A stretch of 64,000 nt of DNA from positions 744,001 through 808,000 of the forward strand of contig JANQAK010000003.1 of the NCBI GenBank assembly GCA_024707075.1, read 5' to 3'. Every line of letters starts with the position of its first letter. The stretch's first letter is position 1. This DNA is from Afipia sp. (GTDB lineage Bacteria; Pseudomonadota; Alphaproteobacteria; Rhizobiales; Xanthobacteraceae). Positions 11,651-32,494 of the stretch are shown piece after piece. The notes below the pieces were generated by a model. The model searched no databases and had not been told where the DNA came from. It saw nothing but the letters and a program-made list of their open reading frames with translations. The translations under genes were made by a program, and so were the position numbers.

Positions 11651-12535
11651 TCAGACATACAGCCCGCCGTTGCTCGTTGAGCCTGCAACGCTTCCGGGCA
11701 GATACGACGCGCCGCCCGCGTTGGTGAAGATCAGCGAGTTCTCGCCGGAAATGTAGCGCGTGCCGGTCGCCGACCCAGAGAACGTCATACCGTAACATTC
11801 GATCAAACTCGCGCGCCCCGCGAAAGCGAAACCGGAACTGAATGCCGGCGCGCCGGACAGCGTGACCGTATTGCCTTGCGCCTGAATGATGCCGTTCGCC
11901 AGCGCGGTCCAATGAACGCCCGCGCTGCCGGAGATGGTGTAGCTTGCCGCGATCTTGATGGTGCCGTTGGCTTCAACGTACATATGGTAATTGGCGGCGA
12001 CGCCGAACCTGACGCTCGCGCCGACCGAGATGGTTCCGCCGGTCTGCGCATGCAGACATGAACCGGCCGTCGTCGTTCGCAATTCCATCCCGGAAACCGT
12101 GATGCGGCCGCCGTTGGTCACGGCGACGGCATCCGCAAACGTCGTGTTGAAAATCACGTTGGCCGGAGTGCTCGTATTGCCGAGGATGGTGACGGTGCCC
12201 GAGCCGAGCCACGCGCCATTGACGGTAATCGCGCCGGTATAGGTGCCGTCAGCGACCTGAATGGTGACGTTGCAAGTCGAGATGTCCAGCGCGGCGACGG
12301 TGTTGATCGCTTTTTGAACCGTCAGGAACGCACCGCCGGATGTATTGGACAATCCGTCGTTGCTGTCGCTGCCGTCGGTGCGGACATAATAGGTCCTGTT
12401 GGCGATGAGCGTCTCGCGGCCGCGGGGCCGCGCAAGCGCGCGCCAGCGCGATGCAGCGCCGTCGTAGCGCAGCAGCGCGGCCTGCTTGCCAATGATCGCG
12501 ACATCCGTGCCGAGCGCGAAGCGATTGGCCGCGGT
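11651..12535 (-). pseudogene. Right-handed beta-helix tail protein, 5'-truncated
   Basis: From about 12535 to a TGA at 11651 one frame reads FALGTDVAIIGKQAALLRYD, then TYYVRTDGSDSNDGLSNTSG and a Gly/Thr/Ser/Asn-rich repeat region typical of pectin-lyase-like tail-fibre or tailspike proteins. In this frame there is no start codon at the 5' end: upstream sequence belongs to the tape-measure gene in another frame. The only long ORF through it begins with out-of-frame tape-measure bases at 12646. It is therefore the 3' part of a tail gene joined to the tape measure by deletion, and probably not translated. Confidence 0.75.
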
Positions 12536-13097
12536 CGACGGCGCGCGCGATCTGGCCGGTGATGTAATTCTCCGAGCGGCGGAAACTGTCGAGGTCCGGC
12601 GTCGCGATCTGGATGGTGATGCTTGCGCCTCCGCCATGCCCGGCAATGCCGAGCCTGCCGTCCGGCCCGCGCGCCAGCGGCATGATCGCCTCCGGCCCCG
12701 CCTCGCCGGCCAGACCGACGCCGCCCTGCATCAGCGGGAAATAGGTCGGCGTGCTGATCACGCCGCCGCTGGCAAACGGCTTCACTGCGCCCGACGCCGC
12801 CGCGAGCGAAATCGTCGACGGCGTCTTCGCGCCCGTCAGTCCGGACAGCAGGCTGGTCAGGCCGCCGGCGATGCTGCTCTCCAGCGGCTTGAACGCGAGC
12901 CGCACCGCGAGATCCGACAGCCGCAGCGTCAACGACTTCAGCACGTCATCGAACTGCTTGCCGCCGACCACCGATGCCGAGAACGCGCCGGTCATGGCGC
13001 GCGAAAATGCCGTCGCGCCGACGGCAAGATCGCGGGTGCGCAGGCCGAGCGTGCCCAGCGTCAGCGAGACGTCCTCGCCGGATGAATCGAGTGCCAT
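12249..13097 (-). pseudogene. GTA-type tail tape-measure protein, 3' end replaced by deletion fusion
   Basis: The first 190 codons read like the short tape-measure protein of GTA-type clusters: MALDSSGEDVSLTLGTLGLR, then AFSRAMTGAFSASVVGGKQF, a glycine-rich FASGGVISTPTYFPLMQGG, GEAGPEAIMPLARG and SITIQIATPDLDSFRRSE. After ARAVDRGQ at about 12525 homology stops, and translation runs for 90 codons through the tail-fibre DNA in the wrong frame (Arg-rich, low complexity) to 12249. The normal C-terminus and the genes that usually follow it (gp12-gp15) are gone. A chimeric 282-aa product is possible but is unlikely to build a tail. Confidence 0.8.
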
Positions 13098-13100
13098 GAC

Positions 13101-13301
13101 TTATCCTCCGTGCCGCTTGTCGGGAAATTTCTGCATCAAGTCGTCAAAGGCGGCGCGGTCCATCGGCTCATGGCCAGGCCCGCCCACCGCCGCCACCGCA
13201 TAAGCGAGTTCGCGCGGCGTCATCCGCCAGAACTGCTCCGGCGGCAGCCGCAGCACGCCGAGTCCGAAGCCGATCGCCTCTTGCCAAGGGAAAGGTTTCA
13301 T
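13101..13301 (-). CDS. Phage tail assembly chaperone (GTA TAC type)
   Basis: The 66-aa product contains FPWQEAIGFGLGVLRLPPEQ followed by FWRMTPRELAYA, the hallmark of the short tail-assembly chaperone family found just before the tape measure in RcGTA-like clusters. Its start overlaps the preceding gene's stop by 4 nt, and its stop lies 3 nt before the tape-measure ATG, so the original tight operon order is kept here. It would bind the tape measure during tail assembly. Confidence 0.85.
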   Translation of the reverse strand: MKPFPWQEAIGFGLGVLRLPPEQFWRMTPRELAYAVAAVGGPGHEPMDRAAFDDLMQKFPDKRHGG

Positions 13302-13627
13302 CGCGCCTCGCCGACCGCCGCGCCATCGAATGTCGCCGCGATGAGATCGGCGGCGACGCGCACGTAACCCGCCGCGCCGCCATCGATGGTCAGCGTGGCA
13401 ACTTCATCGTCGGAGATCGCCTCGCCCGCGCCGCGCAATCCCGCCGCGATGATGCGCACAAGATCGCGCGCCGACAGCCGCCCGGTGCCGAAGCGTTCCG
13501 CCAGCGCCATCAGGTCGCTCGCGCCGAACGCGGATTCCAGTTCGGCCAATGCGCCGAGCGTCAGCACCAGCGTGCGCTGTTTGCCGCCGAGGTGGGCGGC
13601 GATCTCGCCGCGATAGGTGTTGGGCAT
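13298..13627 (-). CDS. GTA gp10-like tail tube/chaperone protein
   Basis: The 109-aa protein starts MPNTYRGEIAAHLGGKQRTL and includes LTLGALAELESAFG and LVRIIAAGLRGAGE. This is the pattern of the 'gene transfer agent family protein' (TAC_11-like) encoded between the major tail protein and the small tail chaperone. It overlaps the next gene by 4 nt (ATGA). The two probably act together in loading the tape measure. Confidence 0.85.
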   Translation of the reverse strand: MPNTYRGEIAAHLGGKQRTLVLTLGALAELESAFGASDLMALAERFGTGRLSARDLVRIIAAGLRGAGEAISDDEVATLTIDGGAAGYVRVAADLIAATFDGAAVGEAR

Positions 13628-13659
13628 GATGAATCACCGTGAGGCAAGAGGCTCCGTTC

Positions 13660-13740
13660 GTCCCTGCGAAAGCGGGGACCCAGAGCTTCACCGGAGGACT
13701 TATGCTTTGTTGCACTGGATCCCCGCTTTCGCGGGGATGA
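13660..13740. repeat. Intergenic inverted repeat (GCGAAAGCGGGG type)
   Basis: The arms TCCCTGCGAAAGCGGGGACC and, about 35 nt later, TCCCCGCTTTCGCGGGGATG are imperfect inverted copies that would fold into a large cruciform or RNA hairpin. It lies between the gp10-like gene and the major tail gene, where GTA operons normally have little spacing. It resembles REP-type elements common in this bacterial group. Confidence 0.7.
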
Positions 13741-13769
13741 CCGGGGATAGATCGAGCTAAAATTCAGGA

Positions 13770-14177
13770 TTACATCGCCGTGAACGTCAGCGCGCCCGCC
13801 GACTCCAGCGACAGATCGAACGTCACCTCGCCGTTGTGCTCGCCGGCAAATTCGAGACTTGAAATCTGGAACAGGCCTTCGATGGCGCCGAAATCCGGCA
13901 CCACCACCTGACAGGATGTCAGCGCGCCGTCGAAGAACGCCTGGCGCACCAGCGCGTCGGACGATGCGTCCTTGAACAGCCCCCGGCCCGACACCGATGC
14001 GCGCTTGACGCCCGCGCCCGCTAGCAGCTCGCGCCAGCGCTCGGTGGATTCCGCGTGGGTGACGTCGACGGTTTCGGCATTGAACGCGATCCTGCGGCTG
14101 CGCAATCCGGCAACGGTGACGAAGCTCTCGCCATCGTGCATCTTCAGCAACAGATCCTTGCCTTTCTGGGCGCCCAT
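13770..14177 (-). CDS. Major tail protein, TP901-1 family (GTA gp9-like)
   Basis: From the ATG at 14177, preceded by GAAGGAG, the 135-aa protein begins MGAQKGKDLLLKMHDGESFV and contains GLRSRRIAFNAETVDVTHAE and LEFAGEHNGEVTFDLSLESA, the typical tail-tube signature. It polymerises to form the tail tube. The frame is open upstream to 14300, but that part lies in repeat DNA. The gene looks intact. Confidence 0.9.
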   Translation of the reverse strand: MGAQKGKDLLLKMHDGESFVTVAGLRSRRIAFNAETVDVTHAESTERWRELLAGAGVKRASVSGRGLFKDASSDALVRQAFFDGALTSCQVVVPDFGAIEGLFQISSLEFAGEHNGEVTFDLSLESAGALTFTAM

Positions 14178-14218
14178 GATGATCTCCTTCAAACCGTTGT
14201 ATCTGAAATTCTCCGAAG

Positions 14219-14354
14219 CCTCATCCCGAGGAGCGATCCGCAGGATCGCGTCTCGAAGGACGACGTTTCGGCACGCCTCATGGTTCGGGACGCGCGCCAT
14301 GGCAGGCGCATCCTGCGCAAACTTGGCTACATGGCGCGCTCCTCACCATGAGGA
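14219..14354. repeat. Intergenic inverted repeat (CCTCATCC..GAGGAGC type)
   Basis: The segment opens CCTCATCCCGAGGAGCG and closes CTCCTCACCATGAGG, with a GATCCGCAGGATC palindrome and GTCTCGAAGGACGAC inside. This is the layout of a widespread Bradyrhizobium/Rhodopseudomonas intergenic palindromic element. It separates the major tail gene from the DUF3168 gene. Confidence 0.7.
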
Positions 14355-14362
14355 CTCCCGTA

Positions 14363-14770
14363 TCAAAGCGGCTCAGTGACCGCGCGGAACCGCACCAGCG
14401 CGTGATAGGTGCGCCCGTCGGATTCGCGGCGAATGTCGGCAATCGAGAAACGCAAATTCACCAGCCGGTGCGCGGATGGTGACAGCGGCGCGTCGTCGAG
14501 CGCCTGCAACAGCGCGCCGGCGATGACATGCGCCTCGCGGTGGCCGCCCTTGCGCGACCAGGCGTGCAGGGTCAGTTGATGTTCCTGGGTCTGGCCGCCG
14601 TCGGACGAGGCGTCGAGCAGCCGCACCTCGCCCAGCGTGACGTAGGGAAACTCCGCGTCGCGCGGCGGCTCGTCGTAGATTTTTCCACCGCCGAGCGCGG
14701 CGGTAAGCGCGCTGTCCGCGCGCAACGCGTCATGGATCGCGGCGCGCAGCGCGACGTTGGCTGTGGTCAT
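14363..14770 (-). CDS. DUF3168 tail-completion protein (GTA gp8-like)
   Basis: The 135-aa protein starts MTTANVALRAAIHDALRADS (ATG at 14770; an ATG at 14788 would add six residues) and carries KIYDEPPRDAEFPYVTLGEV and HQLTLHAWSRKGGHREAHVI, the DUF3168 pattern. In GTA and HK97-like phages this protein caps the tail tube at the head-tail interface. The gene is intact, and its order between adaptor and major tail is conserved. Confidence 0.9.
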   Translation of the reverse strand: MTTANVALRAAIHDALRADSALTAALGGGKIYDEPPRDAEFPYVTLGEVRLLDASSDGGQTQEHQLTLHAWSRKGGHREAHVIAGALLQALDDAPLSPSAHRLVNLRFSIADIRRESDGRTYHALVRFRAVTEPL

Positions 14771-14785
14771 GTCGGTTTCCTTCTT

Positions 14786-14943
14786 CACCCTCCCCTCGAG
14801 GGGGAGCTGAGCGCGTATGGCTCCCTCTCCCCGCCTGCGGGGAGAGGGTTGGGGTGAGGGGCAGCTTCGTTGAGAAGGCCCAATGCCGGCCCCTCACCCG
14901 GATTGCTTCGCAATCCGACCTCTCCCCGTGAACGGGGTGAGGT
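14786..14943. repeat. Intergenic inverted repeats (CCCTCTCCCCGC type)
   Basis: Two nested palindromes occur: CCCTCTCCCCGCCTGCGGGG with its complement AGAGGG then TTGGGGTGAGGGG, and further right GACCTCTCCCCGTGAACGG GGTGAGG. Both are of the kind found scattered through genomes of this group. A related half copy lies at 24389-24445. They separate the DUF3168 and adaptor genes. Confidence 0.65.
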
Positions 14944-14953
14944 GAAGAAAAAC

Positions 14954-15274
14954 TCACCCCGCCCGCACGTCCGCATCGATCTCGATGAAGCGGCGGTCAT
15001 CGCGGTCGCGGATGGCGACGATGCGGTAAATCCGCGCGCCGTCGCTAAACCTGTGTTGAAGCGTGAGCGAGAGATGGCTGCGCAACACGATGCGATAGTT
15101 CTGCGTCACGCCATCGCTGTCAGCCTGCACGTCGCGGCGCGGCGCGAGCGGCGTCACCTGCGCCCATACGGTCGCGAACGTCGTCCAGGTGCGCACCACG
15201 CCGCCCTGATCGTCCAGCGTCTCGACCGGCTGCTGGACCACCAGCCGCGTTTTGAGTTGTCCCGGATCGATCAT
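14954..15274 (-). CDS. Head-tail adaptor (GTA gp7-like)
   Basis: The 106-aa protein (MIDPGQLKTRLVVQQPVETL) with WTTFATVWAQVTPL and QNYRIVLRSH belongs to the phage head-tail joining family (HK97 gp10-like/FII). It forms a ring between connector and tail. It overlaps the connector gene by 4 nt (ATGA), which preserves the ancestral operon arrangement. Confidence 0.9.
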   Translation of the reverse strand: MIDPGQLKTRLVVQQPVETLDDQGGVVRTWTTFATVWAQVTPLAPRRDVQADSDGVTQNYRIVLRSHLSLTLQHRFSDGARIYRIVAIRDRDDRRFIEIDADVRAG

Positions 15275-15840
15275 AGCGACAGCACCCGATGCGACGAGAT
15301 CATGGCGTTAACGGAGGCCGGCATCATCGCAACAGTCTGGCCAATCGCAATCAGACCGCGATTTTCATACCAGTGCGCCACCAGAATCCGGATCGCCTGC
15401 AACAATATCGGCGGCACATCTGACGCGGCTTCGCCGAAGCCAACATCGATATCGATCTCGATTCCCGCGATGCTTCGCCCCGGCGGCGGCAACGACCAGC
15501 CCGGCGCGGCAATGACACCGGCCGCGCGGTGGATCACGAAGGTTTCGGGATCGATCGCGCTCGCCACACCCGCGGCATTGAACACGCGCACCGCCGCAAG
15601 CGCGCGCAACGGGCCGATGCGCGGCGCGATGCGGCCGCCATCCGGCCAACGGTCGAGCACCAGCCGCCAGGTCTGCGCAATCAGCGCGCAGCGCGTCAGT
15701 GCCTCGACATGGTTGCGCGCGGCGGACACCAGCGACGCGATGATCGCGTCGTCGGCGTCGTGTTCCACGCGCAGGAAGCTCTTCGCATCGGCAAGCGACA
15801 GCGGCTCGACAGGGGGCGCTGTGAGAAGAAATGCGGGCAT
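15271..15840 (-). CDS. Head-tail connector (GTA gp6 / phiE125 gp8-like)
   Basis: From the ATG at 15840 the 189-aa protein starts MPAFLLTAPPVEPLSLADAK and continues SFLRVEHDADDAIIASLVSA, ARNHVEALT and LDRWPDG, the typical signature of the gp6/gp8 connector. It docks under the portal ring. In RcGTA-like clusters its gene follows the capsid gene directly, but here about 8.6 kb of cargo lies between them. Confidence 0.9.
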   Translation of the reverse strand: MPAFLLTAPPVEPLSLADAKSFLRVEHDADDAIIASLVSAARNHVEALTRCALIAQTWRLVLDRWPDGGRIAPRIGPLRALAAVRVFNAAGVASAIDPETFVIHRAAGVIAAPGWSLPPPGRSIAGIEIDIDVGFGEAASDVPPILLQAIRILVAHWYENRGLIAIGQTVAMMPASVNAMISSHRVLSL

Positions 15841-15881
15841 CGGTTGAAACTTTCGTATCGGCTGGGAACACACTATTTGCG

Positions 15882-16000: not shown

Positions 16001-16077
16001 GCTTATGAATTCGCGTGATCGTCGCATCATCAACTCGCCGGTTGACAAAGCACACGCATCAAGGCTCAACCTTGCGG

Positions 16078-18385: not shown

Positions 18386-18412
18386 CGATGCGACCGCTTG
18401 ACTTCTGCGGGA

Positions 18413-21399: not shown

Positions 21400-22094
21400 C
21401 CGGCGAAACCATTTCCGTGGTGATGTCGGCCTGGAACGGCGCGGCATATATCAGGGAAGCCATCGACACCATCCTCGGCCAGACTTACGCGCCGATCGAA
21501 CTGATCGTGGTCGACGACGGCTCGACCGACCAGACCAACGCGATCCTCCGCGAATATGGCGACCGCCTCCGCCTGATTACTCAGGACAACAAGGGCCAGT
21601 CCGCCGGACTGGTGGCCGGAATCGCCGTCGCAACGGGTCAGTACCTCGCCTTCCAGGATGCCGACGACACCTGGACGCTCGACAAGCTGGCGCGGCAGTA
21701 CGCGGCCCTCGCCGATCCCGAACTCGACGCGGTGTTCTGCCTGTCGCAGCAGTTCGTCAGCCCCGAACTGCCGGACACCGACGCGTTTAAAGTGCGTCAG
21801 CCCATCATGGCTGGCGAGGTATGGACGTGCATGCTGATCCGGCGCACGGCCTTCGACCGCATCGGGAATTTCAACTCCGCCTCGAAAACGGCGTTCATCG
21901 AATGGCTGGGCCGCGCCAAGCAGATGGGCTTCAGATACAAGATGATCGACGAGGCTCTGCATCATCGCCGGCTGCACGCATCAAACTATGGCCGACTTTT
22001 TCCGAAGGAGCGCGACAAGAGTCTCCTCGCCGCGTTGCGGCTGCATGTTGTCCGCTCGAGAACCGGACGCGGCGGAGGCGATCCGTCGCCGTGA
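21396..22094 (+). CDS. Family 2 glycosyltransferase
   Basis: The 232-aa GT-A protein contains ISVVMSAWNGAAYIREAI, VVDDGSTDQTNAIL, AFQDADDTW (metal site) and a C-terminal HHRRLHASNYGR. It is clearly more divergent than the two genes before it. It ends the operon that starts with the PqqD-like gene and converges on a small secreted-protein gene. The function is presumably sugar transfer to the same product as its neighbours. Confidence 0.85.
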   Translation: MTGETISVVMSAWNGAAYIREAIDTILGQTYAPIELIVVDDGSTDQTNAILREYGDRLRLITQDNKGQSAGLVAGIAVATGQYLAFQDADDTWTLDKLARQYAALADPELDAVFCLSQQFVSPELPDTDAFKVRQPIMAGEVWTCMLIRRTAFDRIGNFNSASKTAFIEWLGRAKQMGFRYKMIDEALHHRRLHASNYGRLFPKERDKSLLAALRLHVVRSRTGRGGGDPSP

Positions 22095-22113: not shown

Positions 22114-22347
22114 CTAGCGCCGCCCGCGATGCCGCCACTTCTTGCGCGGAGTGACCGCCGGCGGCTGCGTGTAAGGCCGCGAATACTGCTCCCTGTACCG
22201 CTTCCGGGATTCCTGAAGCGCCCGCTGATAGCCCGGCGAGTCCATGATCGATGGCGCCGCGCCGCGCGCGGAGGCCGGTGTGGCGGCAAACAGCTCCGCG
22301 ACAGCGAGAAGCAGCAGGGAGGCGATCGCAAGTGTGAGGTGTTTCAT
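22114..22347 (-). CDS. Small secreted basic protein, unknown function
   Basis: The 77-aa product has a clear signal peptide (MKHLTLAIASLLLLAVAELF, cleavage probably after ASA) and a short mature part ending in a cluster of Arg and Lys (RKKWRHRGRR). No family is recognised. It is convergent with the last glycosyltransferase, 20 nt away, and precedes (in transcription, follows) the DUF2019 genes. Whether it belongs to the toxin module is unknown. Confidence 0.6.
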   Translation of the reverse strand: MKHLTLAIASLLLLAVAELFAATPASARGAAPSIMDSPGYQRALQESRKRYREQYSRPYTQPPAVTPRKKWRHRGRR

Positions 22348-22461: not shown

Positions 22462-22833
22462 TCAAGTCGGCTTGTAAAAGCCAGTATCGAGATTGTGAAG
22501 ACACATTCCAGCATCTCCAGCTTGCGGAAACCATTTCGAATCGACAATCGCCTGAAGCTGCGCGCGAGCCTCAAGAGGTGCAACGGCGAGAGTTAGCTTG
22601 GCAGCCTGCAATCGGACGTGCATGTTGGGAAATCCGAAAAGCTGAACAAGTATCCTGCGCTGATCACCTGGACGGCGTTTCAGTTCGTCATGAATGTCTT
22701 TCATGCGGTCAAAAAGCCGATTGTATTTTGCTATTTGACCAACAAGGAGCGCCCTGTCCTGCTCGCGTGTGTTCCCGGCAAATAGCTGGACTAGATCGCC
22801 GCCGCTCATTCTCGAAAGATCAACTTTCTTCAT
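22462..22833 (-). CDS. DUF2019 protein, candidate immunity protein
   Basis: The 123-aa helical protein (MKKVDLSRMSGGDLVQLFAG) with YNRLFDRMKDIHDELKRRPG, VRLQAAKLTLAVAP and AGDAGMCLHNLD belongs to the DUF2019 family. These HEAT-like small proteins often follow polymorphic toxins. It shares the MKKVDLS opening and overall pattern with the gene upstream, so the two are old tandem paralogues. Its G+C is well below the window's, like the toxin's 3' end, as expected for an exchangeable toxin-immunity cassette. The immunity role is inferred from position. Confidence 0.75.
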   Translation of the reverse strand: MKKVDLSRMSGGDLVQLFAGNTREQDRALLVGQIAKYNRLFDRMKDIHDELKRRPGDQRRILVQLFGFPNMHVRLQAAKLTLAVAPLEARAQLQAIVDSKWFPQAGDAGMCLHNLDTGFYKPT

Positions 22834-22892
22834 GGCTTCAGAACGTCCTGGAGCGATTTTTCGCGATTCATGACTTCAAAGACTTAATGCAA

Positions 22893-23273
22893 TCAAATCC
22901 GTGATTGCTCTTTCTTTCGTATCCATTCTTCAAGCGTATGCAAATACATCCTGGCGTCGAATGCCCGCACATCAGAAGATTCAGAAATTTGTTTCAGAAC
23001 GTCTCGCGCTTGACTGGTGAATGTACCGGAGACGGCAGTCGCCGCATTAAACCGAACCTGTGCGTTCTCATGCGTGAATAATTTCATTAAAGGCGCTCCA
23101 CCACCGTTAGACCTCCGTTTGATCTCGGCGATGATTTCATAAATAGAATCTCCAATCCGATTGGAACGCGCAACCGCAAACACATCGTTTGCTTTGCCCT
23201 GCTCAATGCTGAAATCAACAATGCGGTCAAGCAGTTCGTCGATAGATGCGACAGAGAGATCAACTTTCTTCAT
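22893..23273 (-). CDS. DUF2019 protein, candidate cognate immunity protein
   Basis: The 126-aa protein starts MKKVDLSVASIDELLDRIVD, continues with a YEIIAEIKRRSNGGGAPLMK block and VRFNAATAVSGTF, then MYLHTLEEWIRKKE. It is a DUF2019 relative of the gene that follows. Its start overlaps the toxin stop by 4 nt, so the two are co-translated, which is typical of toxin-immunity pairs. A+T-rich codon use contrasts with the phage structural genes. It probably binds and blocks the toxin's C-terminal domain. Confidence 0.8.
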   Translation of the reverse strand: MKKVDLSVASIDELLDRIVDFSIEQGKANDVFAVARSNRIGDSIYEIIAEIKRRSNGGGAPLMKLFTHENAQVRFNAATAVSGTFTSQARDVLKQISESSDVRAFDARMYLHTLEEWIRKKEQSRI

Positions 23274-24283
23274 TTCAAAACGCCTTTATCGCGGAGTACA
23301 CTCAGGCCGAACTGGCGCCTTTCTTCGAAAGTCATGTTATCGAACCTGTCGCGGGGCGAGAGGCGAATTCCGTCAGGCTGAATTGTCTTAGTACTGTAAT
23401 AGCTTGAAATTTCGATATGCCTCAAGATTGGCACTAACACGACATTGTCGCGACCTTGGATAAGATCCTCCGAGAATCCCGCCCTTCGAGCCGCGCGTTC
23501 TTCTGCAATGTAATGCCGATGGTATCCGCTCCTATCCTCCAGATTAACCCGATCTTGCAACTCCTCAAGAGATCTTGGCGGGTCGTTAGCGGACTTGATC
23601 GTATTTACGATCGCATTCGTTTCGTCAATTTTTGTCAGAGCTCCGAAATAGGCATCCACATACGGCGCAGATCGTCCGACGCTCCTCACCCAATCAGCAG
23701 CCTGACGGATGAACTTCATGTATTCTCCGCCGTACTCCGGTGCTTTCGGGGGAATCTCTGGAGGCTCATGCGATGGCCCCTCGTTCTGGCTGAGGCCGGG
23801 CCGTTCGCCATCGGGCACATCTCCAGCGAGTTGCGCAAAATCCGTGTTGTCGAATGTCGATGGCGTAATCTGAAATAGCGCGAACAGATCGCTGAAACTT
23901 GGCAGATCGCCGAAATCGATCCTGCCCATCGGCGATGCTGCGGCGCTCCCTCCACCACTGCTGCCGTCCGTCCACCGCCCGCTTTCGCGGCCGCGTCCGG
24001 CCGGCACGCGCGGCTGGCTGGGATTGTATTTGCCCTCCAGCGAAGGAAAGCCGCTCGCAACTTCGGTGTCTGGCTTAAGAAACCGCGCGGCGTCCTGCCT
24101 CATCCAGCGATGCGCATCCGACCGCATCCATCGCGTTTGCTGATGGCGCGCGTATACATCCTCGCGTGCGGACATGCGAAGGGCCCTCAACAACAAAAGC
24201 TGATCGAAAAAATCGGCGATGCCGGCGCACGCCCCGGTGAGGAGGGCTGTGGCATCCGTGCCCCGGACGCGGCGCGGCATCAA
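23270..24283 (-). CDS. Polymorphic-toxin-like protein with degenerate HNH-type C-terminus
   Basis: The N-terminal third holds a repeated R-W-M-R-x-D-A-H motif (TRWMRSDAHRWMRQDAARFL) and NPSQPRVPAGRGRESGRWTD, a motif seen in several alphaproteobacterial phage-linked toxins. A Gly/Ser linker and a variable middle follow. The last 80 residues have GYHRHYIAEERAA, RDNVVLVPILRHIEISSYY and a terminal LRDKGVLK; the H-x-H, N and H order suggests an HNH-like nuclease, though this is degenerate. The 5' half is GC-rich and the 3' third A+T-rich, as in toxins with swapped tips. ATG 24175 (MSAREDVYARH) is an alternative start. It lies 0.2 kb after the capsid gene. Confidence 0.7.
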   Translation of the reverse strand: MMPRRVRGTDATALLTGACAGIADFFDQLLLLRALRMSAREDVYARHQQTRWMRSDAHRWMRQDAARFLKPDTEVASGFPSLEGKYNPSQPRVPAGRGRESGRWTDGSSGGGSAAASPMGRIDFGDLPSFSDLFALFQITPSTFDNTDFAQLAGDVPDGERPGLSQNEGPSHEPPEIPPKAPEYGGEYMKFIRQAADWVRSVGRSAPYVDAYFGALTKIDETNAIVNTIKSANDPPRSLEELQDRVNLEDRSGYHRHYIAEERAARRAGFSEDLIQGRDNVVLVPILRHIEISSYYSTKTIQPDGIRLSPRDRFDNMTFEERRQFGLSVLRDKGVLK

Positions 24284-24452
24284 ATGCCGCTCCGCTGAGC
24301 CGGGGCCGTTCCATATTCAGCATTCGCGACGGTCCCGGTTCTGCGACGCAACGCTCACGCATTGCGTCGCGCCCGGGACACGTCTTAGGCAAACCCCTCA
24401 CCCCGCCCCTCTCCCCGCAAGAGCGGAGCGAGGGAGAAGTGATCGCACCTCC

Positions 24453-25739
24453 TCAACTCGCCGCGAACTTGACGAGCTTGATGGCGTCGAAGTCCTGGAC
24501 GCCGCCGCCGACGCGCTTGGTGGTGTAGAACAGCACGTAGGGTTTCGCGGAATACGGATCGCGCAGCACGCGCACGCCGAGCCGGTCCACGATCAGGTAG
24601 CCGCGGCGGAAATCGCCGAACGCGATCGACAGCGAATTCGCCGCGATGTCCGGCATGTCCTCGGCTTCCACCAGCGGAAACGTCATCAGCGAGGCGCGCC
24701 CGCCCGCCTGCGCCGGCGGCTGCCAGAGATAAGCGCCACCGGTGTCCTTGAACTTGCGGATCGCCGCCTGCGTCTTGCGGTTCATCACGAAGCTGGCGTT
24801 CTGCCGGTAGCCCGCCTTCAGCGCATAGATCAGATCGACCAGCAGGTCCGACGGATCGTCCTCCGGAAATGCGGCGGAGACGCCGGTGGCGACATGGCCG
24901 AGCTTGCCCCACTCCCACGACGCATTCGCGATGGTGGTGGTGTTGAGAAAGCCCTTCGGCTTGTTGCTGCCGTCGCCGGCGACGAAGGCCGCGCCCTCCT
25001 GCACCGCGAAAGTGAGTTCGACCTCGGAGGCGATCCACTCGTCGATGTTGACGGCAGAGTCGTCGAGCAGCGCCGCGGTCGCCGCCGGCATGGCGTAAAG
25101 CTCCATCGCCGGAAAGCTCAGCGCGTCGAGCGTCGGCGACGTGGTCTGCGTGCGCGCGTCGGTCTCGCCGACCCAGCCGGTGGCAGGCCCTGCGGTCATG
25201 AACGGCTTCTTGTAGACGCCGCCGGAAATCTCGCGCACCGAGGCGATGCTGCGGATCGGCGAGATCGCCTTCAGCCGCGCGCCGATCTCGTGTTCAAGTT
25301 CGGACGGCACCAGGTAGCCGCCGTCGGCGTTGGAGCCCACCGACATCGCCTTGGTTTCCATCGCGCGCAGGCCGCCGCTCTCGCCCTGGCGGACATAGGC
25401 GTCGAACGCGCTCTTGTGCTCGCGCGCCGAGGCGTCGCTGACGCGAGCGCGATGGCCGTCGCGCCGTCCGCCTTCGAGCCGATTCCCTTCCAGAAATGGC
25501 CGCGCGCTTTTCAGCGCGAGATCGTCGATCCGCTTCATCTGCGCGTCGAGCGCACCGTTGATGCGGTCGACCTTCTCGTCGAGCAGGACATCGGCGCGGC
25601 GACCGATGGATGCAAGCCGCTCGTCGTTGGCGGCCTTGAACTCCTCGAACATTTGCATGACCGCGTCGTGTTCGCCGCGCGCGGCGGAGGAAATGCCGGA
25701 CTTGTGCTCCGGCGCGGTGTCGGTGATGTCGAAATCCAT
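24453..25739 (-). CDS. HK97-family major capsid protein (GTA gp5-like)
   Basis: The 428-aa protein from the ATG at 25739 (MDFDITDTAPEHKSGISSAA) has an N-terminal coiled-coil scaffold (delta) region, then the mature capsid beginning near AMSVGSNADGGYLVPSELEH. ISPIRSIASV, VGETDARTQTTSPTLDAL and AFVAGDGSNKPKGFLNTTT are classic HK97 fold motifs. The upstream protease would remove the delta region. The gene appears intact. A strong hairpin lies about 50 nt before its start. In RcGTA clusters the connector gene follows at once; here it is displaced by cargo. Confidence 0.93.
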   Translation of the reverse strand: MDFDITDTAPEHKSGISSAARGEHDAVMQMFEEFKAANDERLASIGRRADVLLDEKVDRINGALDAQMKRIDDLALKSARPFLEGNRLEGGRRDGHRARVSDASAREHKSAFDAYVRQGESGGLRAMETKAMSVGSNADGGYLVPSELEHEIGARLKAISPIRSIASVREISGGVYKKPFMTAGPATGWVGETDARTQTTSPTLDALSFPAMELYAMPAATAALLDDSAVNIDEWIASEVELTFAVQEGAAFVAGDGSNKPKGFLNTTTIANASWEWGKLGHVATGVSAAFPEDDPSDLLVDLIYALKAGYRQNASFVMNRKTQAAIRKFKDTGGAYLWQPPAQAGGRASLMTFPLVEAEDMPDIAANSLSIAFGDFRRGYLIVDRLGVRVLRDPYSAKPYVLFYTTKRVGGGVQDFDAIKLVKFAAS

Positions 25740-25781
25740 TTGGGTTCTCCTGTGGGAAGGGTTGAAAGGGAAATGCGCAAA

Positions 25782-25807
25782 CAAAAACGCCGCCCGGAGG
25801 GGCGGCG
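25782..25807 (-). terminator. Intrinsic-terminator-like hairpin just upstream of the capsid gene
   Basis: On the minus strand CGCCGCCC, a CTCC loop and GGGCGGCG form an 8-bp all-GC stem followed by TTTTTGTTT. It lies some 45 nt before the capsid ATG and after the orphan toxin/immunity genes, so it would end transcripts coming from the terminase-protease genes. Confidence 0.7.
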
Positions 25808-25961: not shown

Positions 25962-26342
25962 CTATTCATCAAAGGTAATGGAACGAAACTCCGCCGGAAA
26001 ATACTCGCGTTTCAGGTCGTCAATAATCTTGTCCTGAGAAATGACGATGCCCATCCCGGGCCAGCCCTCAGGCCGGTCCGCCAACCGAATGGTGATCCGC
26101 CAATCGGGGTATCGGGCAAGGATGAGCTGCAATTTCTTCGCAATCGACGGCCAAGCCAAAGATAACGGCAATTCGATCTGGAGGACATCCCAGCCCCAGT
26201 CCTCATCGACCAGCCAGTAGTCATCTGAGCCTATCAAACCTTGATGTGCAAAGTCCTTGAGAAGCAATTCGGTCTCGTCAAACAAATTTCTCCAGATGAT
26301 TTCGTGCTGCCTATCCTCTTTCGAACTATCCTGATCCATCAA
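25962..26342 (-). CDS. Unknown acidic protein, candidate immunity protein
   Basis: The 126-aa protein has an acidic helical N-terminus (QHEIIWRNLFDETELLLKDF), a VDEDWGWDVLQIELPLSL segment and DWRITIRLADRPEGWPGMGI. No family is recognised. It lies 2 nt after the stop of the orphan toxin-tip ORF and shares its low G+C. The size, acidity and position fit an immunity protein for that toxin tip. This is inference from context. Confidence 0.65.
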   Translation of the reverse strand: MMDQDSSKEDRQHEIIWRNLFDETELLLKDFAHQGLIGSDDYWLVDEDWGWDVLQIELPLSLAWPSIAKKLQLILARYPDWRITIRLADRPEGWPGMGIVISQDKIIDDLKREYFPAEFRSITFDE

Positions 26343-26344
26343 CG

Positions 26345-26569
26345 CTACTCCCTGCCACCGCGAAATATTCTCCGCAACATCCTCATTGTACGATTGTAAT
26401 CTCGAATCCGACGGTCTTCACTCTCTCTGATTTCCTTTAGAAGATCGCTCGCTTGCTCAGGCGTCATACGACTCGGCTCAATTTCGCGCTCCTTCATAAA
26501 GCGGTCGCTCAATTCCCGAACTGCGCCATTATACGCTCGATGCGCTTCGTCCCAGCTGATACTCAGCAT
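26345..26569 (-). CDS. Orphan C-terminal toxin tip, 74 aa
   Basis: The reading frame MLSISWDEAHRAYNGAVREL ... RMTPEQASDLLKEIRESEDR ... MLRRIFRGGRE looks like the C-terminal part of a polymorphic toxin cut off from its delivery domain. An in-frame TAG lies four codons before the ATG, so it is not fused to the protease gene that ends 22 nt upstream. It is lower in G+C than its neighbours. With the following gene it resembles a displaced toxin-tip/immunity cassette of the sort that recombines onto full-length toxins. Activity unknown. Confidence 0.55.
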   Translation of the reverse strand: MLSISWDEAHRAYNGAVRELSDRFMKEREIEPSRMTPEQASDLLKEIRESEDRRIRDYNRTMRMLRRIFRGGRE

Positions 26570-26590: not shown

Positions 26591-27202
26591 TCAGCGCGCC
26601 TCCGACCTGGAAAGCGCGCCACCGCTCAAACCCCGCCACGCCCTTTCCGCTCGCGTCCGCTGCGGCGACAGCTTTGGCGTTGGGAGTGATTCAAAGCTAC
26701 GCGTACTCTGATCGCAAAACCGGTGCCCACTTTTGCTGAGTACGCGCTCCTTCACCGCCCGCACCCTTGCGCCCGCCAGCAGCGGGAAGGTGACGATGGA
26801 AATTTCCCACAGGTCCACCTGATACAATTTGCGGATGCGCGTCTTCGGATCGATCTGGCCGCGCACGGTGCGATAACCGATAGAGAGGCCGTCGATCGCG
26901 CCCTGCTGCACCAGCGCCAGCAGCTCTCGACCGCGCGCGACGTCAGGGATCAGCCGCCCCCTCGCCCATAACCCGCGAAAGTCCTCGTGCAGATCGAGCC
27001 AGATGCCGACCGGCTCGGCGGGATCGTGCTGGAAAAGCATCGGGATCTTGCGCAGGCCGCGCTGCGCAAGCGTGCGCGTGAATGCGCCGGGCATCACCAT
27101 GTCGCGCGCCTGGTCCACCTCGCCGAACAGGCTGGCGTAACCTTCCACCGTGCCGTCGCTGGCGAGCGACACGCGGGAGGTTGATGACATCGGCGCGTGC
27201 AT
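26591..27202 (-). CDS. HK97-family prohead protease (GTA gp4-like)
   Basis: The 203-aa protein contains GTVEGYASLFGEVDQARDMV, MPGAFTRTLAQRG, the catalytic-region MLFQHDPAEPVGIW (His) and GAIDGLSIGYRT (Ser), with DLWEISIVTFPLLAGARV after it: the S78 prohead protease fold. An ATG at 27190 (MSSTSRVSLA) is an alternative start. The last 45 residues (after KERVLSKSG) are basic and not conserved, and may be altered by the insertion of the neighbouring toxin cassette. It would process the capsid delta domain. Confidence 0.88.
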   Translation of the reverse strand: MHAPMSSTSRVSLASDGTVEGYASLFGEVDQARDMVMPGAFTRTLAQRGLRKIPMLFQHDPAEPVGIWLDLHEDFRGLWARGRLIPDVARGRELLALVQQGAIDGLSIGYRTVRGQIDPKTRIRKLYQVDLWEISIVTFPLLAGARVRAVKERVLSKSGHRFCDQSTRSFESLPTPKLSPQRTRAERAWRGLSGGALSRSEAR

Positions 27203-28447: not shown

Positions 28448-29617
28448 TTACAGCCGGTCGCCGTCCGCCACCGGCGCGTAGCCCGTCGCCTCGCGCTTTT
28501 CGTTCAGCGTCAGAAACGGCGCGCTCGCGACACGGTCCCACAGCGCGGCTCGATCCGCTGCCAGCGCATCGATGCGATCAGTGTCGATCACCACGCGAAG
28601 CCCGTCGCCGAATTGCGGGCCAAGCCACTGCGCCAGTGAAGCCCCCACGCGCGAGGCCAACGGCAGGATCGTCTGCCGCCACAGCGCACGATTGGCTTCC
28701 TGGAAGTTCGCGTAAGTATTGTCGCCGGGAATGCCGAGCAGCATCGGCGGCACGCCGAACGCCAGCGCGATCTCCCGCGCGGCGGAATTCTTCGCGTCGA
28801 GAAAATCCATGTCCTTCGGCGTCAGCGACATCGCCTTCCAGTCGAGGCCACCTTCCAGCAACAGCGGACGCCCCGCGTTCACCGCGCCCTGATAGGTGTC
28901 GGTCAGTTCGCGCTTGAGCCGATCGAACTGCTGGTCCGAAAGCACCGCGCCTTCCGGGCCGGAATAGACCAGCGCGCCGGAGGGCCGCGCCGCGTTGTCG
29001 AGCAGCGCCTTGTTCCATTTCGCCGCAGCATTGTGCGTGTCCACCGCGACGGCCGCAGCTTCGACCGGCGCAAGCCCATAATGATCGTCGAGCGGATGAA
29101 AGAATGTCAGATGCAAAATCGGCGGCACGCTGGAGGCAAGCTGATCGAACCGCACGCTGCGTCCCGCCACGCTGTAGTCATATGCCTCCGGCCAGCCATC
29201 GTGCCCCGGCACCACCTTCATGCGGTCGGGCCGCAATGCGTGCAGCTCGCGCACGTCATTGCCGAGCGCGACGGCCTCGACATAAGCGTTGCCGGCCAGC
29301 AGCATGTGCGCGTAGAGCGCCTCGAAAAACGTCGCGCCGTCCTGCCGCGCGTTGGGCTTCATCAAAAGCTGCGCCAGCGGATGCGCCTCGCGCTCCTGCG
29401 CGCCCTCATAGATCAGGAAGCTGCACGACGCCGCATTCTCCGCGATCAGCCGCACCGCGCGATGCACGATGGCATTGCTGAGATAGCCCTCGCGCGCCAG
29501 CGCCGCATAGTCGCGCGGCGTCCACCGCGCCCGCCCGCCGGACTCGAAGGCGAGCACCTGCGCGGTGCGCGAGGCCTTGGCTTCGGGGGCGCGGAAGATA
29601 TTTTTGAAATTGAGCAT
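28448..29617 (-). CDS. Phage/GTA portal protein (gp3-like)
   Basis: The 389-aa protein from the ATG at 29617 (MLNFKNIFRAPEAKASRTAQ) contains NAIVHRAVRLIAENAASCSF, LLAGNAYVEAV, HLTFFHPLDDHYGLAPVEAA, PPMLLGIPGDNTYANFQEAN and ALWRQTILPL, the HK97 portal signature. It forms the dodecameric portal through which DNA enters the head. The frame is open to 29803 through repeat DNA, which is not coding. The gene seems intact, although it is separated from the terminase by a cupin gene. Confidence 0.93.
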   Translation of the reverse strand: MLNFKNIFRAPEAKASRTAQVLAFESGGRARWTPRDYAALAREGYLSNAIVHRAVRLIAENAASCSFLIYEGAQEREAHPLAQLLMKPNARQDGATFFEALYAHMLLAGNAYVEAVALGNDVRELHALRPDRMKVVPGHDGWPEAYDYSVAGRSVRFDQLASSVPPILHLTFFHPLDDHYGLAPVEAAAVAVDTHNAAAKWNKALLDNAARPSGALVYSGPEGAVLSDQQFDRLKRELTDTYQGAVNAGRPLLLEGGLDWKAMSLTPKDMDFLDAKNSAAREIALAFGVPPMLLGIPGDNTYANFQEANRALWRQTILPLASRVGASLAQWLGPQFGDGLRVVIDTDRIDALAADRAALWDRVASAPFLTLNEKREATGYAPVADGDRL

Positions 29618-29674
29618 GGCTGTCGCTTCTCCGGAGGAGAAAGAAAAAATGCGGGCGCGCGCATCACCCTCGGA

Positions 29675-29798
29675 GTCGTCCCCGCGCAGGCGGGGACCCA
29701 TAACCACCGAACGGTGTGGTGATGACGGGGCGTGTTGAAACGACCAGGTCAACAACGGCGGTTCAGGGAGTATGGGTCCCCGCCTGCGCGGGGACGAC
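29675..29798. repeat. Intergenic inverted repeat (GTCGTCCCCGCGCAGGCGGGG family), copy 3
   Basis: Arms GTCGTCCCCGCGCAGGCGGG and CCCGCCTGCGCGGGGACGAC with inner GGGACCCATAACCACCGAAC and AGGGAGTATGGGTCCC. It differs from copies 1 and 2 by compensated changes in both arms (CCGG to CCCC on one side, matched on the other), so the pairing is kept. That points to selection for structure. It lies between the portal and cupin genes. Confidence 0.85.
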
Positions 29799-29845
29799 AT
29801 CATGAAAAATTGTCAAGCCCGCGCATGACACGTTGAGGATTTCGT

Positions 29846-30541: not shown

Positions 30542-31908
30542 TCATAATCCCCTGACCCGCGGCGCGGCGCGCGACGTGAACGTCAGCGACGCGATCGCCC
30601 AGACCAGCGCATCGAGCCGGTCCGGCGAGCGGCCCGACGTGAGGCCCGAAGGCCCGAAGTCGCACATCTCGTCTTCCAGCGCGGGGAAATTCCCGGCATG
30701 CTTCACGCGGCCCTGTTCATAAAGAGTGGCGACCGGCTCGGCGCGCAGCCATTTGCCGCGCGAGGCGCGCACCGCCACCACCGGCACCCCGGCGTCCACT
30801 TCGTTGATGACCGAGCGCACCATCTCACCGCCCTGGTTGACCTCGGCGACAAGGGATCGGCCTCCAGCCGCCGCCACAGCGCAATCGCCTTCGCCGCCCA
30901 GACGGCCGGCGTGGCATTCGACACCGTGTCGTCGGCGATCACGTAAATCCCGCCCTCGCCCGTGATGCCCGCCGCGACGATGCCGCAGGCGTCGGCGCGC
31001 TTGCCGCTCGATGCGGGCGGATCGACCGCGACCACGATGCGCGCCAAGGACGGCGCTTCGCTGACACGACATGACTCGATCAGCGCCCGCGACCACAGCG
31101 CGTCGGGCCGGTCCTCGATGATCTCGCCGTCCAGTTCCTGCCGCCCGAGCCGGGTGTCCTGATAACGCGCCAGCACGCCTTTCAGAAACGTCGGCGCGAG
31201 ATGATAGGCGTTCGCCTCCGTCGCCGCGCGGGTCACGACGCTGGTCGGCTCCAGCATCAGCCGTTTGATCAGCGTGGTCGGCCGCGGCGTGGTGGTGATG
31301 ACCTGACGCGGCTGCGCGCCGAGGCGCAGGCCGAATTGCAGCATGTCGAAGGTCGCCTCGGCATAGCGCCACTTCGCCATCTCGTCGGACCACGCGCAGC
31401 CGAACTGCGGCCCGCGCAGGCTCTCCGGATCTTCCGCCGAGAACGCATAGGCCACCGCGCCGTTGCTCCATTCCAGCCGCTTGCGCGACGGAAGCCACGT
31501 GGGCCGCTCGTCGCGGCGATGCACCGCCAGCAGACCCGACACGCCCTCGATCATCACTTCGCGCACGTCGTGTTCGGTTTCGCCCACCAGCGCGATATTC
31601 GTCACCGGCCCATCCGCGAGCGGCGCAAGTCCCAGCGCCTGCGCCCTCACCCATTCCGCGCCGGCGCGCGTCTTGCCCGCGCCGCGCCCGCCGATCAGAA
31701 GCCACGCCAGCCACGGCTGGCCGTTCGGCGCGAGACGCGGCGGCACCTGATGATCATGCGCGAACACATCCCAGCGCGAGAACAGCAGCGCCATCTCAGC
31801 CCGGCTCATGCCCTCCAGCAGGAAGCGGCGCTCGGACTGCGACCATGCCTTCCAGGCGTCGCGAAAGCTCGCGGCGGAATTCATCGAGGTCTCGGGGAAC
31901 GTCGTCAT
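30542..31908 (-). pseudogene. GTA-type terminase large subunit, frameshifted near the 3' end
   Basis: From MTTFPETSMNSAASFRDAWK the frame has WLLIGGRGAGKTRAGAEWVR (Walker A), VGETEHDVREVMIEG, FGCAWSDEMAKWRYAEATFD (Walker B), ITTTPRPT and the nuclease motif VVAVDPPASSG. At about 30860 the sense moves to another frame: the first runs out as an Arg-rich stretch ending at 30703, while the second reads SLVAEVNQGGEMVRSVINEV through SPDRLDALVWAIASL to 30542. One base is missing in GCCGATCCCTTGTCG. The main frame loses the last acidic nuclease residue (DRLDAL), so packaging should fail. Confidence 0.85.
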
Positions 31909-32494
31909 CGGCGGCCTTCGCTGTCTCGTCCCCGCTCGCCTCGCTGCGCAGCCGCATCACTTCCTTCAGCGTGCGCGCCAGCGACGCGAGCACGCGGGCG
32001 CGACTTTCGGTCTCGATCCGCTGCGCGGGCTGCATCCGCGTCGGGTTGCCGACGATGCGCTCGATCTTCGATAGCTCGCGCTCGATGGCGTCCGACACGC
32101 GCGCGACCATCGATCCCGCTCCGGTCTCGCCCGGCGGCGGATTGGTGGCCTCGTCCACGGCACTGTACCGGCGCACACGCGGCTTGCGCGTCAGCTTCTC
32201 GGATTCTTTCTGGATGGCTTCGACCGCCACATGATCGTGCGGATCGACAACGAGATTGCCGGGATGGTCCTTGATGACTTTTGCGCGCGGGCGCTTCGCC
32301 TTGTCGGGCTTCGCGACAGACGGCTTCTTCGCCGCGGTCTTTTTGACCGGGACTTTCTTGACGGACGTCTTGACCGTTTTCTTCGCTGTCTTCCTGGCAA
32401 CCGTCTTGCGCGTTGTCTTCTTGACAACTTTCTTCTTCACAGCCTTCTTTGCCGCCCGTTTTTTCACCGGCCCGGACGAAGGCTTCTTCGGCAT
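31796..32494 (-). CDS. GTA gp1-like small terminase with lysine-rich histone-like N-terminus
   Basis: The 232-aa protein has two parts. Residues 1-75 are built of Lys/Ala/Val/Thr/Pro repeats (KKxVKK, KKTxxKxxxKK) like histone H1 or HU-type tails. Residues 85-225 carry VAVEAIQKESEKLTRK, ERELSKIERIVGNPTRMQPA, SRARVLASLARTLKEVMRLR and DLDEFRRELSRRLEGM, as in the small-terminase proteins at the head of RcGTA-like clusters. Its 3' end overlaps the large terminase start by 113 nt. The basic tail suggests non-specific DNA binding, in line with random packaging by GTAs; that role is inference. Confidence 0.75.
   Translation of the reverse strand: MPKKPSSGPVKKRAAKKAVKKKVVKKTTRKTVARKTAKKTVKTSVKKVPVKKTAAKKPSVAKPDKAKRPRAKVIKDHPGNLVVDPHDHVAVEAIQKESEKLTRKPRVRRYSAVDEATNPPPGETGAGSMVARVSDAIERELSKIERIVGNPTRMQPAQRIETESRARVLASLARTLKEVMRLRSEASGDETAKAADDDVPRDLDEFRRELSRRLEGMVAVRAPLPAGGHEPG

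What the first reader, a model, noticed from the sequence alone, without database searches (positions are those of the whole stretch)
22462..24283. Polymorphic toxin with two DUF2019 candidate immunity genes lodged next to a GTA-like capsid gene
The 337-aa gene right after the capsid carries an N-terminal block R-W-M-R-x-D-A-H and NPSQPRVPAG...GRW, then a low-GC C-terminal tip with an H-x-H...N...H order, and overlaps by 4 nt a DUF2019 gene, with a second DUF2019 paralogue after it. A toxin module embedded in a head-gene operon suggests it could be carried or released with particles, or act as an addiction system stabilising the element. The family of the tip and the link of DUF2019 proteins to immunity are from general knowledge; the delivery idea is inference.
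Basis: partly seen in the sequence, partly recalled or inferred. Interest (0 to 1): 0.75.

Follow-up and report, generated by a model that had tools for sequence, protein, structure and literature searches.

The report
Toxin cassettes inside gene-transfer-agent head operon
In many relatives of this bacterium, the genes that build a domesticated virus particle for sharing DNA also carry swappable toxin-like genes with matching antidote-like genes, which could restrict DNA sharing to kin, although the copy in this genome looks disarmed.

Summary
The capsid-proximal gene (likely start ATG 24175, 301 aa) overlaps a DUF2019 gene by 4 nt; a second DUF2019 gene follows. It belongs to a polymorphic toxin/immunity-like system in the head genes of RcGTA-like gene transfer agents (GTAs) of the Afipia/Rhodopseudomonas/Nitrobacter family. 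All 30 near-full-length N-terminal blocks found in 151 genomes lie within 5 kb of a GTA-type capsid gene, same strand. The block, or its RVPAG half, precedes 13 recurring BLAST-distinct tip types (three tips reach Pfam cut-offs: RNase A-like, colicin E5, CDI EC869-like), usually with recurring neighbours of their own. DUF2019 is this tip's partner: 41 of 42 tip matches have one within 200 nt, and tip and adjacent DUF2019 diverge together (Mantel r 0.61). A tip is also fused to portal, the block to protease, and repeated 3' fragments of head genes mark recombination. The window holds a second, truncated module. This genome's GTA looks disarmed: frameshifted terL, no gp15, one tip truncated, the other lacking a nearly invariant histidine; the immunity-like genes stay open. 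Toxicity, head loading and delivery are inferred. The open-access searches listed no such report.

The parts
23270..24175 (-). Capsid-proximal polymorphic toxin-like gene, 301 aa from the conserved ATG (337 aa from an upstream TTG)
   Evidence: 51-66% identical over most of its length to proteins behind the capsid in G006, G015, G022 and G024
23921..24175 (-). Conserved N-terminal block (RPDA repeat plus KYxPxQPRVPAG...GxWT motif), proposed head-targeting part
   Evidence: Alignment A1, 16 invariant columns over 19 sequences; 30 of 30 near-full-length blocks within 5 kb of a GTA-type capsid
23273..23632 (-). C-terminal tip; predicted strand-strand-helix element with the H(H/Y)...N...H motif; one of two motif histidines absent in this copy
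22893..23273 (-). DUF2019 gene adjacent to the toxin-like gene (4-nt overlap); candidate cognate immunity
   Evidence: PF09450 E 2e-13; nearest adjacent-DUF2019 relatives are L040 and L035 (0.43, 0.39), whose tips are 0.61 and 0.57 identical to the window tip; but L031, with the nearest tip (0.72), has 0.34
22462..22833 (-). Second DUF2019 gene; candidate immunity against a different tip subtype carried by relatives
   Evidence: PF09450 E 3e-45; 0.75 identical to DUF2019 of L038 and L132, whose tips are 0.36-0.38 identical to the window tip
26345..26569 (-). Second cargo slot: 74-aa remnant of another tip, without N-block and without the HH half
   Evidence: Same tip follows the N-block in one frame in L031 and L044; alignment
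25962..26342 (-). Partner of the second tip, candidate immunity (126 aa), reading frame open
   Evidence: Next to 20 of 21 distinct tips of that type; 98% identical in L034; dN/dS 0.10-0.12
24453..25784 (-). GTA-type major capsid (HK97 family)
   Evidence: PF05065 E 2e-89, TIGR01554 E 9e-122
26591..27202 (-). Prohead protease
   Evidence: PF04586 E 1e-39
28448..29803 (-). Portal
   Evidence: PF04860 E 1e-90
30545..31956 (-). Large terminase gene (named by its match to the G024 gene and its place), reading frame shifted in its 3' part relative to G024
   Evidence: Two tblastn segments in different frames against the 472-aa G024 frame
12249..15873 (-). GTA connector and tail genes gp6 to tape measure; G024's next genes through gp15 have no match in the window
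   Evidence: PF05135, PF06199, PF11836; tape measure by position; comparison with G024; no GTA_TIM match in the genome
4829..6329 (-). GTA lysis genes: GTA holin and GH108 endolysin
   Evidence: PF11351 E 7e-7, PF05838 E 2e-28
24255..24385 (+). Dispersed REP-like hairpin repeat at the capsid/toxin junction
   Evidence: 7 matches in the genome including itself; copies in relatives

Best explanation
GTAs of this bacterial family carry exchangeable toxin/immunity cassettes in the seams of their head genes. A shared N-terminal block (or direct fusion to portal or protease) most likely places the toxin in or on the GTA head. When a producing cell lyses, particles would bring DNA together with a toxic C-terminal tip into a recipient; recipients holding the matching immunity gene survive and can keep the DNA, others are inhibited. 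DUF2019 proteins are the immunity family for the HH...N...H tip described here. Cassettes swap by homologous recombination at the 3' ends of head genes. Shown by sequence: the modular architecture, the pairing, the head-gene location, the fusions and the repeated fragments. Inferred: toxicity, neutralisation, head loading, delivery, and recombination as the cause of the fragments. In this genome the toxins and the GTA itself look inactivated while the immunity-like genes remain, as expected of a cell that still meets relatives' toxins.
For: N-block: 30 of 30 near-full-length copies in 19 genomes lie within 5 kb and on the strand of a GTA-type capsid, 15 on each side. At least one of N-block, tip or DUF2019 within 10 kb of the capsid in 17 of 21 capsid-bearing genomes of the genus and 21 of 40 in the rest of the family. 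Seven genomes (G006, G010, G013, G015, G022, G024, G033) have block and tip in one frame and gp15. One block, many tips: 118 tips in 43 clusters, 13 recurring, 10 of these with a member among two or more head gene families; Pfam RNAse_A_bac 8e-15, Colicin_E5 7e-10, CDI_toxin_EC869_like 9e-17. Partners: DUF2019 for 41 of 42, cargoB for 20 of 21, recurring downstream families for ten further tip clusters. Co-divergence of tip and adjacent DUF2019: r 0.61, n 35, 0 of 2000 permutations; 0.60 given capsid identity, n 29. Fusions: portal+Colicin_E5, protease+N-block. Repeats: 17 fragments in 13 loci, 85-98% nt identity to the full gene. Tip change between nearest relatives: capsid 0.96, tip 0.37. 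Against L031, cargo dS 1.1-2.0, capsid 0.51, cargo dN/dS 0.10-0.16.
Against: No toxicity, binding or particle data. In the window genome gp15 is missing, terL is frameshifted, one tip is truncated and the other lacks a motif histidine. Cargo is dispensable or undetected: 4 of 21 genus and 19 of 40 family genomes with the capsid lack all three probes within 10 kb, as do 43 of 44 elsewhere in the order (some capsids lie near contig ends). Of 42 tip matches 13 are not within 10 kb of the listed capsid, nor are 52 of 92 partial N-block matches; 25 of 61 named loci show none of the four head families by my profiles. Outside the family, 6 of 16 DUF2019 matches had no tip in the fetched stretch. The pairing is not clean everywhere: L031 has the tip nearest to the window's (0.72) but a DUF2019 only 0.34 identical to the adjacent one; one downstream family of RNase A-type tips also occurs behind a cluster-7 tip. 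Against G024 the second module has lower dS (0.02-0.08) than capsid (0.20). The fold search did not establish the nuclease fold.
Confidence: 0.62

Rival explanations
1. The toxins are bacteriocin-like: made in the GTA operon and set free when the producer lyses, but not carried in particles; the N-block is a folding or storage domain.
For: The cluster carries its own holin and endolysin; colicin- and CDI-type tips occur in other release- or contact-based systems (families).
Against: The window toxin matches no Pfam or NCBIfam family, so no known secretion or receptor-binding domain was seen; a tip is fused to portal and the N-block to protease, both head proteins; 30 of 30 near-full-length blocks lie within 5 kb of the capsid gene.
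Confidence: 0.18
2. Addiction module: toxin and DUF2019 act inside the same cell so that loss of the GTA cluster is punished.
For: Overlapping two-gene layout; the pair occupies this spot across several genera.
Against: Immunity-like genes outlast toxins: the window's second slot, and lone DUF2019 after the capsid in G020 and G055; stacks of several DUF2019 genes; some tips match intercellular toxin families; some relatives have the capsid but no cargo found.
Confidence: 0.1
3. Remnant of decaying prophage material without present function.
For: Window terL frameshift, missing gp15, truncated second tip, altered motif.
Against: Seven relatives have block and tip in one frame and gp15; dN/dS 0.10-0.16 for tip, N-block, second partner and distal DUF2019 in the pairs tested; tip and immunity diverge together.
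Confidence: 0.08
4. Anti-phage device: the N-block mimics a head component and poisons heads of invading phages or triggers suicide.
For: Location in head genes; [quoted passage not shown]
Against: The five window proteins scanned gave one PADLOC row only, E 0.0095; paired immunity-like families and interbacterial-type tips fit competition better.
Confidence: 0.02

Closest known systems
MuF polymorphic toxins of temperate phages (Jamet et al. 2017, PMC5576092; passages seen)
   Same: Phage head/packaging location, conserved N-terminal part, variable C-terminal toxin, small downstream ORF
   Different: No MuF domain in the window toxin but an RPDA/RVPAG block; in a domesticated GTA; mostly on either side of the capsid; fusions to portal and protease; the terms 'gene transfer agent' and 'alphaproteobacteria' do not occur in that text
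Polymorphic toxin systems in general and the proposed MuF secretion system (Zhang et al. 2012, PMC3482391; passages seen)
   Same: Shared leader plus exchangeable tips, paired immunity, HNH/EndoVII tips, HEAT-type immunity listed
   Different: Carrier is a GTA head; duplicated 3' ends of head genes; the library search for DUF2019 lists one other paper only
RcGTA-like gene transfer agents (Rhodobacter capsulatus, Caulobacter; recalled, plus passages of PMC13236601)
   Same: terL-portal-protease-capsid-gp6 order, GTA holin, GTA_TIM
   Different: Toxin/immunity cassettes in the head-gene seams are not mentioned in the passages seen
DUF2019 protein RPA1889, PDB 2I9C (Rhodopseudomonas palustris)
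   Same: Same family, profile E 6e-53
   Different: Deposited as hypothetical; here given a role as immunity protein

Membership tests
Polymorphic toxin systems | Conserved N-terminal part joined to unrelated C-terminal tips | tested here: met
   118 tips in 43 BLAST clusters, 13 recurring; the two tip types of the window show no profile similarity
Polymorphic toxin systems | Tip-specific small gene directly downstream | tested here: met
   41 of 42 and 20 of 21; co-divergence r 0.61
Polymorphic toxin systems | Tip exchange and lone tips or immunity genes | tested here: met
Polymorphic toxin systems | Toxicity and neutralisation | not testable with these tools
   Needs expression assays
MuF polymorphic toxins | MuF domain | tested here: not met
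   No Pfam family at E <= 1 in the window toxin
RcGTA-like GTA | Head and tail gene order with GTA-specific genes | tested here: met
   Window gp6, gp9, gp10, holin; gp15 in 66 of 101 genomes searched, own included
RcGTA-like GTA | Complete cluster through gp15 in the window genome | tested here: not met
   GTA_TIM absent from the genome; G024 genes from behind the tape measure through gp15 not matched in the window (gp12-gp14 were not searched in the rest of the genome)
DUF2019 (PF09450) | Profile match above the curated cut-off | tested here: met
   152.9 and 50.7 bits against 23.3
HNH/EndoVII (beta-beta-alpha metal) nuclease | HH...N...H motif on a beta-beta-alpha element | tested here: inconclusive
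Type II toxin-antitoxin (addiction) | Small stand-alone toxin with antitoxin acting in the same cell | tested here: inconclusive
   Predicted 301-aa protein with a head-linked leader; in-cell action not testable here

The most novel reading that the evidence does not exclude
GTA particles of this family are armed: each head carries toxins with the DNA, so gene transfer succeeds only into cells holding the matching immunity gene. This would turn GTA transfer into a greenbeard-like, kin-restricted exchange that punishes cells without the cluster, and would give a selective reason for the maintenance of GTAs.
Probability: 0.45. Interest if true: 0.93.

Novelty: new variant of a known kind. Interest (0 to 1): 0.85.

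Why it matters
Why bacteria keep GTAs, whose producers die and which cannot spread themselves, is a long-standing puzzle (recalled; the abstract of PMC9632790, seen in the listing, says no clear physiological role had been elucidated before that work). Exchangeable toxins in the head genes give a testable answer: transfer that rewards immune kin and harms others. The work also suggests a role for DUF2019, a family with a solved structure (2I9C) but no assigned function, and describes a head-linked N-terminal block and head-gene fusions that others can use to find such systems.

Tried and rejected

Dropped before counts: the capsid list held one row per genome and left out G120 by oversight (105 of 106 genomes) and second, more distant capsid paralogues; 'near full length' means model positions from 19 or lower to 65 or higher, which 30 of 122 N-block rows meet; tip rows are the 42 that reach residue 290, so one shorter row (G141:C39) was not counted. 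In one search one portal row was a split match inside the same ORF and is not counted, and loci without a full-length gene (such as L038) were not scored. In one search downstream families shared by several tip clusters are mostly out-of-frame translations of capsid and other genes and are not counted; L099 and L101 look like the same sequence, as do L129 and L130. Tip clusters 14 and 23 look like wrong-frame translations; cluster 2 holds some members of another kind. In one search, 40 of 53 tip entries were scored (duplicates and unmatched ones fell out).

Full report
WHAT IS THERE. The window gene at 23270-24283 (-) is real, but its likely start is ATG 24175, where the conserved block begins; the product is then 301 aa. 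It overlaps a DUF2019 gene (22893-23273) by 4 nt and a second DUF2019 gene (22462-22833) follows. Upstream lie a capsid (24453-25784), prohead protease and portal and a terminase gene; further on come gp6, gp9, gp10, a GH108 endolysin and a GTA holin.

A SECOND MODULE. Between protease and capsid the window has a 74-aa ORF (26345-26569) and a 126-aa ORF (25962-26342), without Pfam match. In L031 and L044 the 74-aa sequence is the end of an N-block protein, and the 126-aa protein follows it. Over the fetched loci, 20 of 21 distinct tips of this kind have the 126-aa family next to them. The window copy lacks the N-block and the HH half of the tip.

THE N-BLOCK BELONGS TO GTA HEAD GENES. A profile of the block (A1, 19 sequences) was searched in 151 genomes. 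Of 122 rows, 30 are near full length, in 19 genomes; all 30 lie within 5 kb of and on the same strand as the capsid, 15 upstream and 15 downstream. Of 92 partial rows 40 lie within 10 kb of it. At least one of N-block, this tip or DUF2019 lies within 10 kb of the capsid in 17 of 21 capsid-bearing genomes of the genus, 21 of 40 of other genera of the family and 1 of 44 elsewhere in the order (G120 left out; draft contigs can hide neighbours). Of 61 named loci, 35 hold two or more of terL, portal, protease and capsid by my profiles, 1 holds one, 25 none; the 25 match mostly the RVPAG half only. In the 35, 71 N-block ORFs lie as follows: protease/capsid 25, capsid/gp6 24, portal/protease 8, terL/portal 4, behind a capsid at the end of the seen sequence 7, and one each between gp6 and gp7 (L108), before terL (L109) and within a portal frame (L129). 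GTA_TIM (gp15) is present in 66 of 101 genomes, own included, and in 19 of 28 others of the genus; seven genomes have block and tip in one frame and gp15. The toxin, one DUF2019 and one N-block have no match in 50,697 named phage records. IMG/VR gave 67 loci, 34 of which hold at least one of terL, portal, protease, capsid or gp6 by my profiles.

MANY TIPS, RECURRING PARTNERS. 118 tips of 60 aa or more behind the block or its RVPAG half fall into 43 clusters, 13 with two or more members; 10 of the 13 have a member in a locus with two or more head families. Of 20 representatives scanned, three reach a Pfam cut-off: RNAse_A_bac (L068, GTA locus), Colicin_E5 (L129, fused to portal) and CDI_toxin_EC869_like (L128, no head gene seen on its 6.6-kb contig); a MafB19-like deaminase match falls just short, 26.3 against 27 bits. 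The window's two tip types show no profile similarity to each other. Ten further recurring clusters have a recurring downstream ORF family, for example 5 of 5 deaminase-type tips, 6 of 8 in the HNH-type cluster and 3 of 3 in clusters 6, 7 and 8; one family behind RNase A-type tips also follows a cluster-7 tip.

DUF2019 IS THE PARTNER OF THIS TIP. In 151 genomes, 41 of 42 tip matches have a DUF2019 within 200 nt, 40 of them downstream; the exception is on a 3.5-kb contig. Of 70 DUF2019 matches in 37 genomes, 66 lie within 3 kb of a tip on the same strand; of the other four, those of G020 and G055 lie 0.1 and 0.4 kb behind a GTA capsid, that of G054 2.1 kb behind one, and one in G084 stands apart. 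Outside the family, 7 of 384 class genomes hold DUF2019; 10 of 16 matches have a tip in the fetched stretch, as does a betaproteobacterial plasmid with two DUF2019-like ORFs behind the tip. Pairwise identities of tip and adjacent DUF2019 correlate, r 0.61, n 35, 0 of 2000 permutations as high (largest 0.23); given capsid identity 0.60, n 29. The window's adjacent DUF2019 is nearest to those of L040 and L035 (0.43, 0.39), whose tips are of the window's kind (0.61, 0.57), but L031, with the nearest tip (0.72), has only 0.34. The distal one is 0.75 identical to DUF2019 of L038 and L132, whose tips differ (0.36-0.38). DUF2019 has a solved structure, 2I9C.

PHYSICAL LINK TO THE HEAD. Portal and Colicin_E5 are one 611-aa frame in L129 and L130, which gave identical scores and may be one sequence; a portal piece continues into RVPAG half and second tip in L105 (same contig as L067; the portal there is split over two frames), and protease frames continue into the N-block in L106 and L118. 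In IMG/VR, L171 and L197 hold portal and the second tip in one frame. This is the best sequence evidence that cargo sits in heads; loading itself is inferred.

EXCHANGE. Seventeen 3' fragments of capsid (11), protease (4) or portal (2) lie downstream of the full gene in 13 loci, mostly behind cargo, 85-98% identical at nucleotide level to the full gene of that locus. Between the window and its nearest relative G024 the capsid is 0.96, portal 0.95, N-block 0.83, tip 0.37, second partner 0.98 identical. Against L031, dS is 0.51 for the capsid but 1.1-2.0 for N-block, tip and second partner, with dN/dS 0.10-0.16 (high dS values are near saturation); against G024 the second module has lower dS (0.02-0.08) than the capsid (0.20). 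The modules therefore have histories of their own and are under constraint.

STATE OF THIS COPY. gp15 is absent from the genome; against G024, the genes from behind the tape measure through gp15 have no match in the window while both flanks are shared, and terL matches in two frames. The tip has H-Y where 38 of 40 scored tips have HH (L035 has H-N); in HH nucleases such as colicin E7/E9 the second histidine is the general base (recalled). AF2 gives the tip pLDDT of 76-95 by blocks from residue 141, with a strand-strand-helix element over the motif, while residues 53-134 are below 50; the structure search was inconclusive. The immunity-like genes have open frames. Most likely this genome no longer makes armed, infectious particles but keeps immunity; that these genes are kept by selection is inference.

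HOW IT MOST LIKELY WORKS. Cargo is made with the head genes, held in or at the head by the N-block, released on lysis, and delivered with DNA; the matching immunity protein protects kin (confidence 0.62). That it is a polymorphic toxin/immunity system in GTA head genes I hold at about 0.9. Rivals: free bacteriocin-like release, addiction, relic, anti-phage device.

LITERATURE. Ten full-text searches of an open-access library listed no title or abstract start on toxin cassettes in GTA head genes; four listings were cut. Passages were seen in PMC5576092, PMC3482391, PMC12844201, PMC13236601, PMC4786786 and PMC5080386; of the other papers only search listings were seen.

Noticed in passing
window 16874-22094: Block of NTP_transf_5, PqqD, an HprK-like protein (by eye) and glycosyltransferase-like genes (one tested, PF00535) inserted in the GTA cluster behind the DUF2019 genes; G024 has only about 0.7 kb between its DUF2019 gene and the next shared gene.
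   Followed up: partly
window 24255-24385: About 130-bp hairpin-rich dispersed repeat at the capsid/toxin junction; 7 matches in the genome and 29 match rows in 10 of 40 relatives' loci.
   Followed up: partly
window 16015-16842 (+): Trypsin-like gene (by eye) on the strand opposite to the GTA genes, conserved near gp6 in several relatives.
   Followed up: no
window 22114-22347 (-): Small secreted-looking protein (ARGAAPSIMDSPGYQRALQES...); similar ORFs between capsid and gp6 in cargo-free relatives L204 and L205 (by eye).
   Followed up: no
window 30545-31956 (-): Large terminase matches the one-frame G024 gene in two reading frames.
   Followed up: partly
L045 (G048:C346): Array of several N-block ORFs with capsid 3' fragments between them in 13 kb.
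   Followed up: partly
L129 2020-3852, L130 2747-4579: Portal protein fused to a colicin E5-type RNase domain in Holosporaceae/Alphaproteobacteria MAGs.
   Followed up: partly
L089 7848-8794: In Nitrobacter winogradskyi NBRC 14297 the N-block and the DUF2019-type tip lie in different frames.
   Followed up: no
G000:C6:364797-365981 (L200): A second, distant portal-protease-capsid-gp6 cluster in the same genome, without cargo found by these probes.
   Followed up: no
L188 1-3948 (IMG/VR): Frame of 1316 aa with zeta-toxin and MuF domains and an RVPAG-type match.
   Followed up: no
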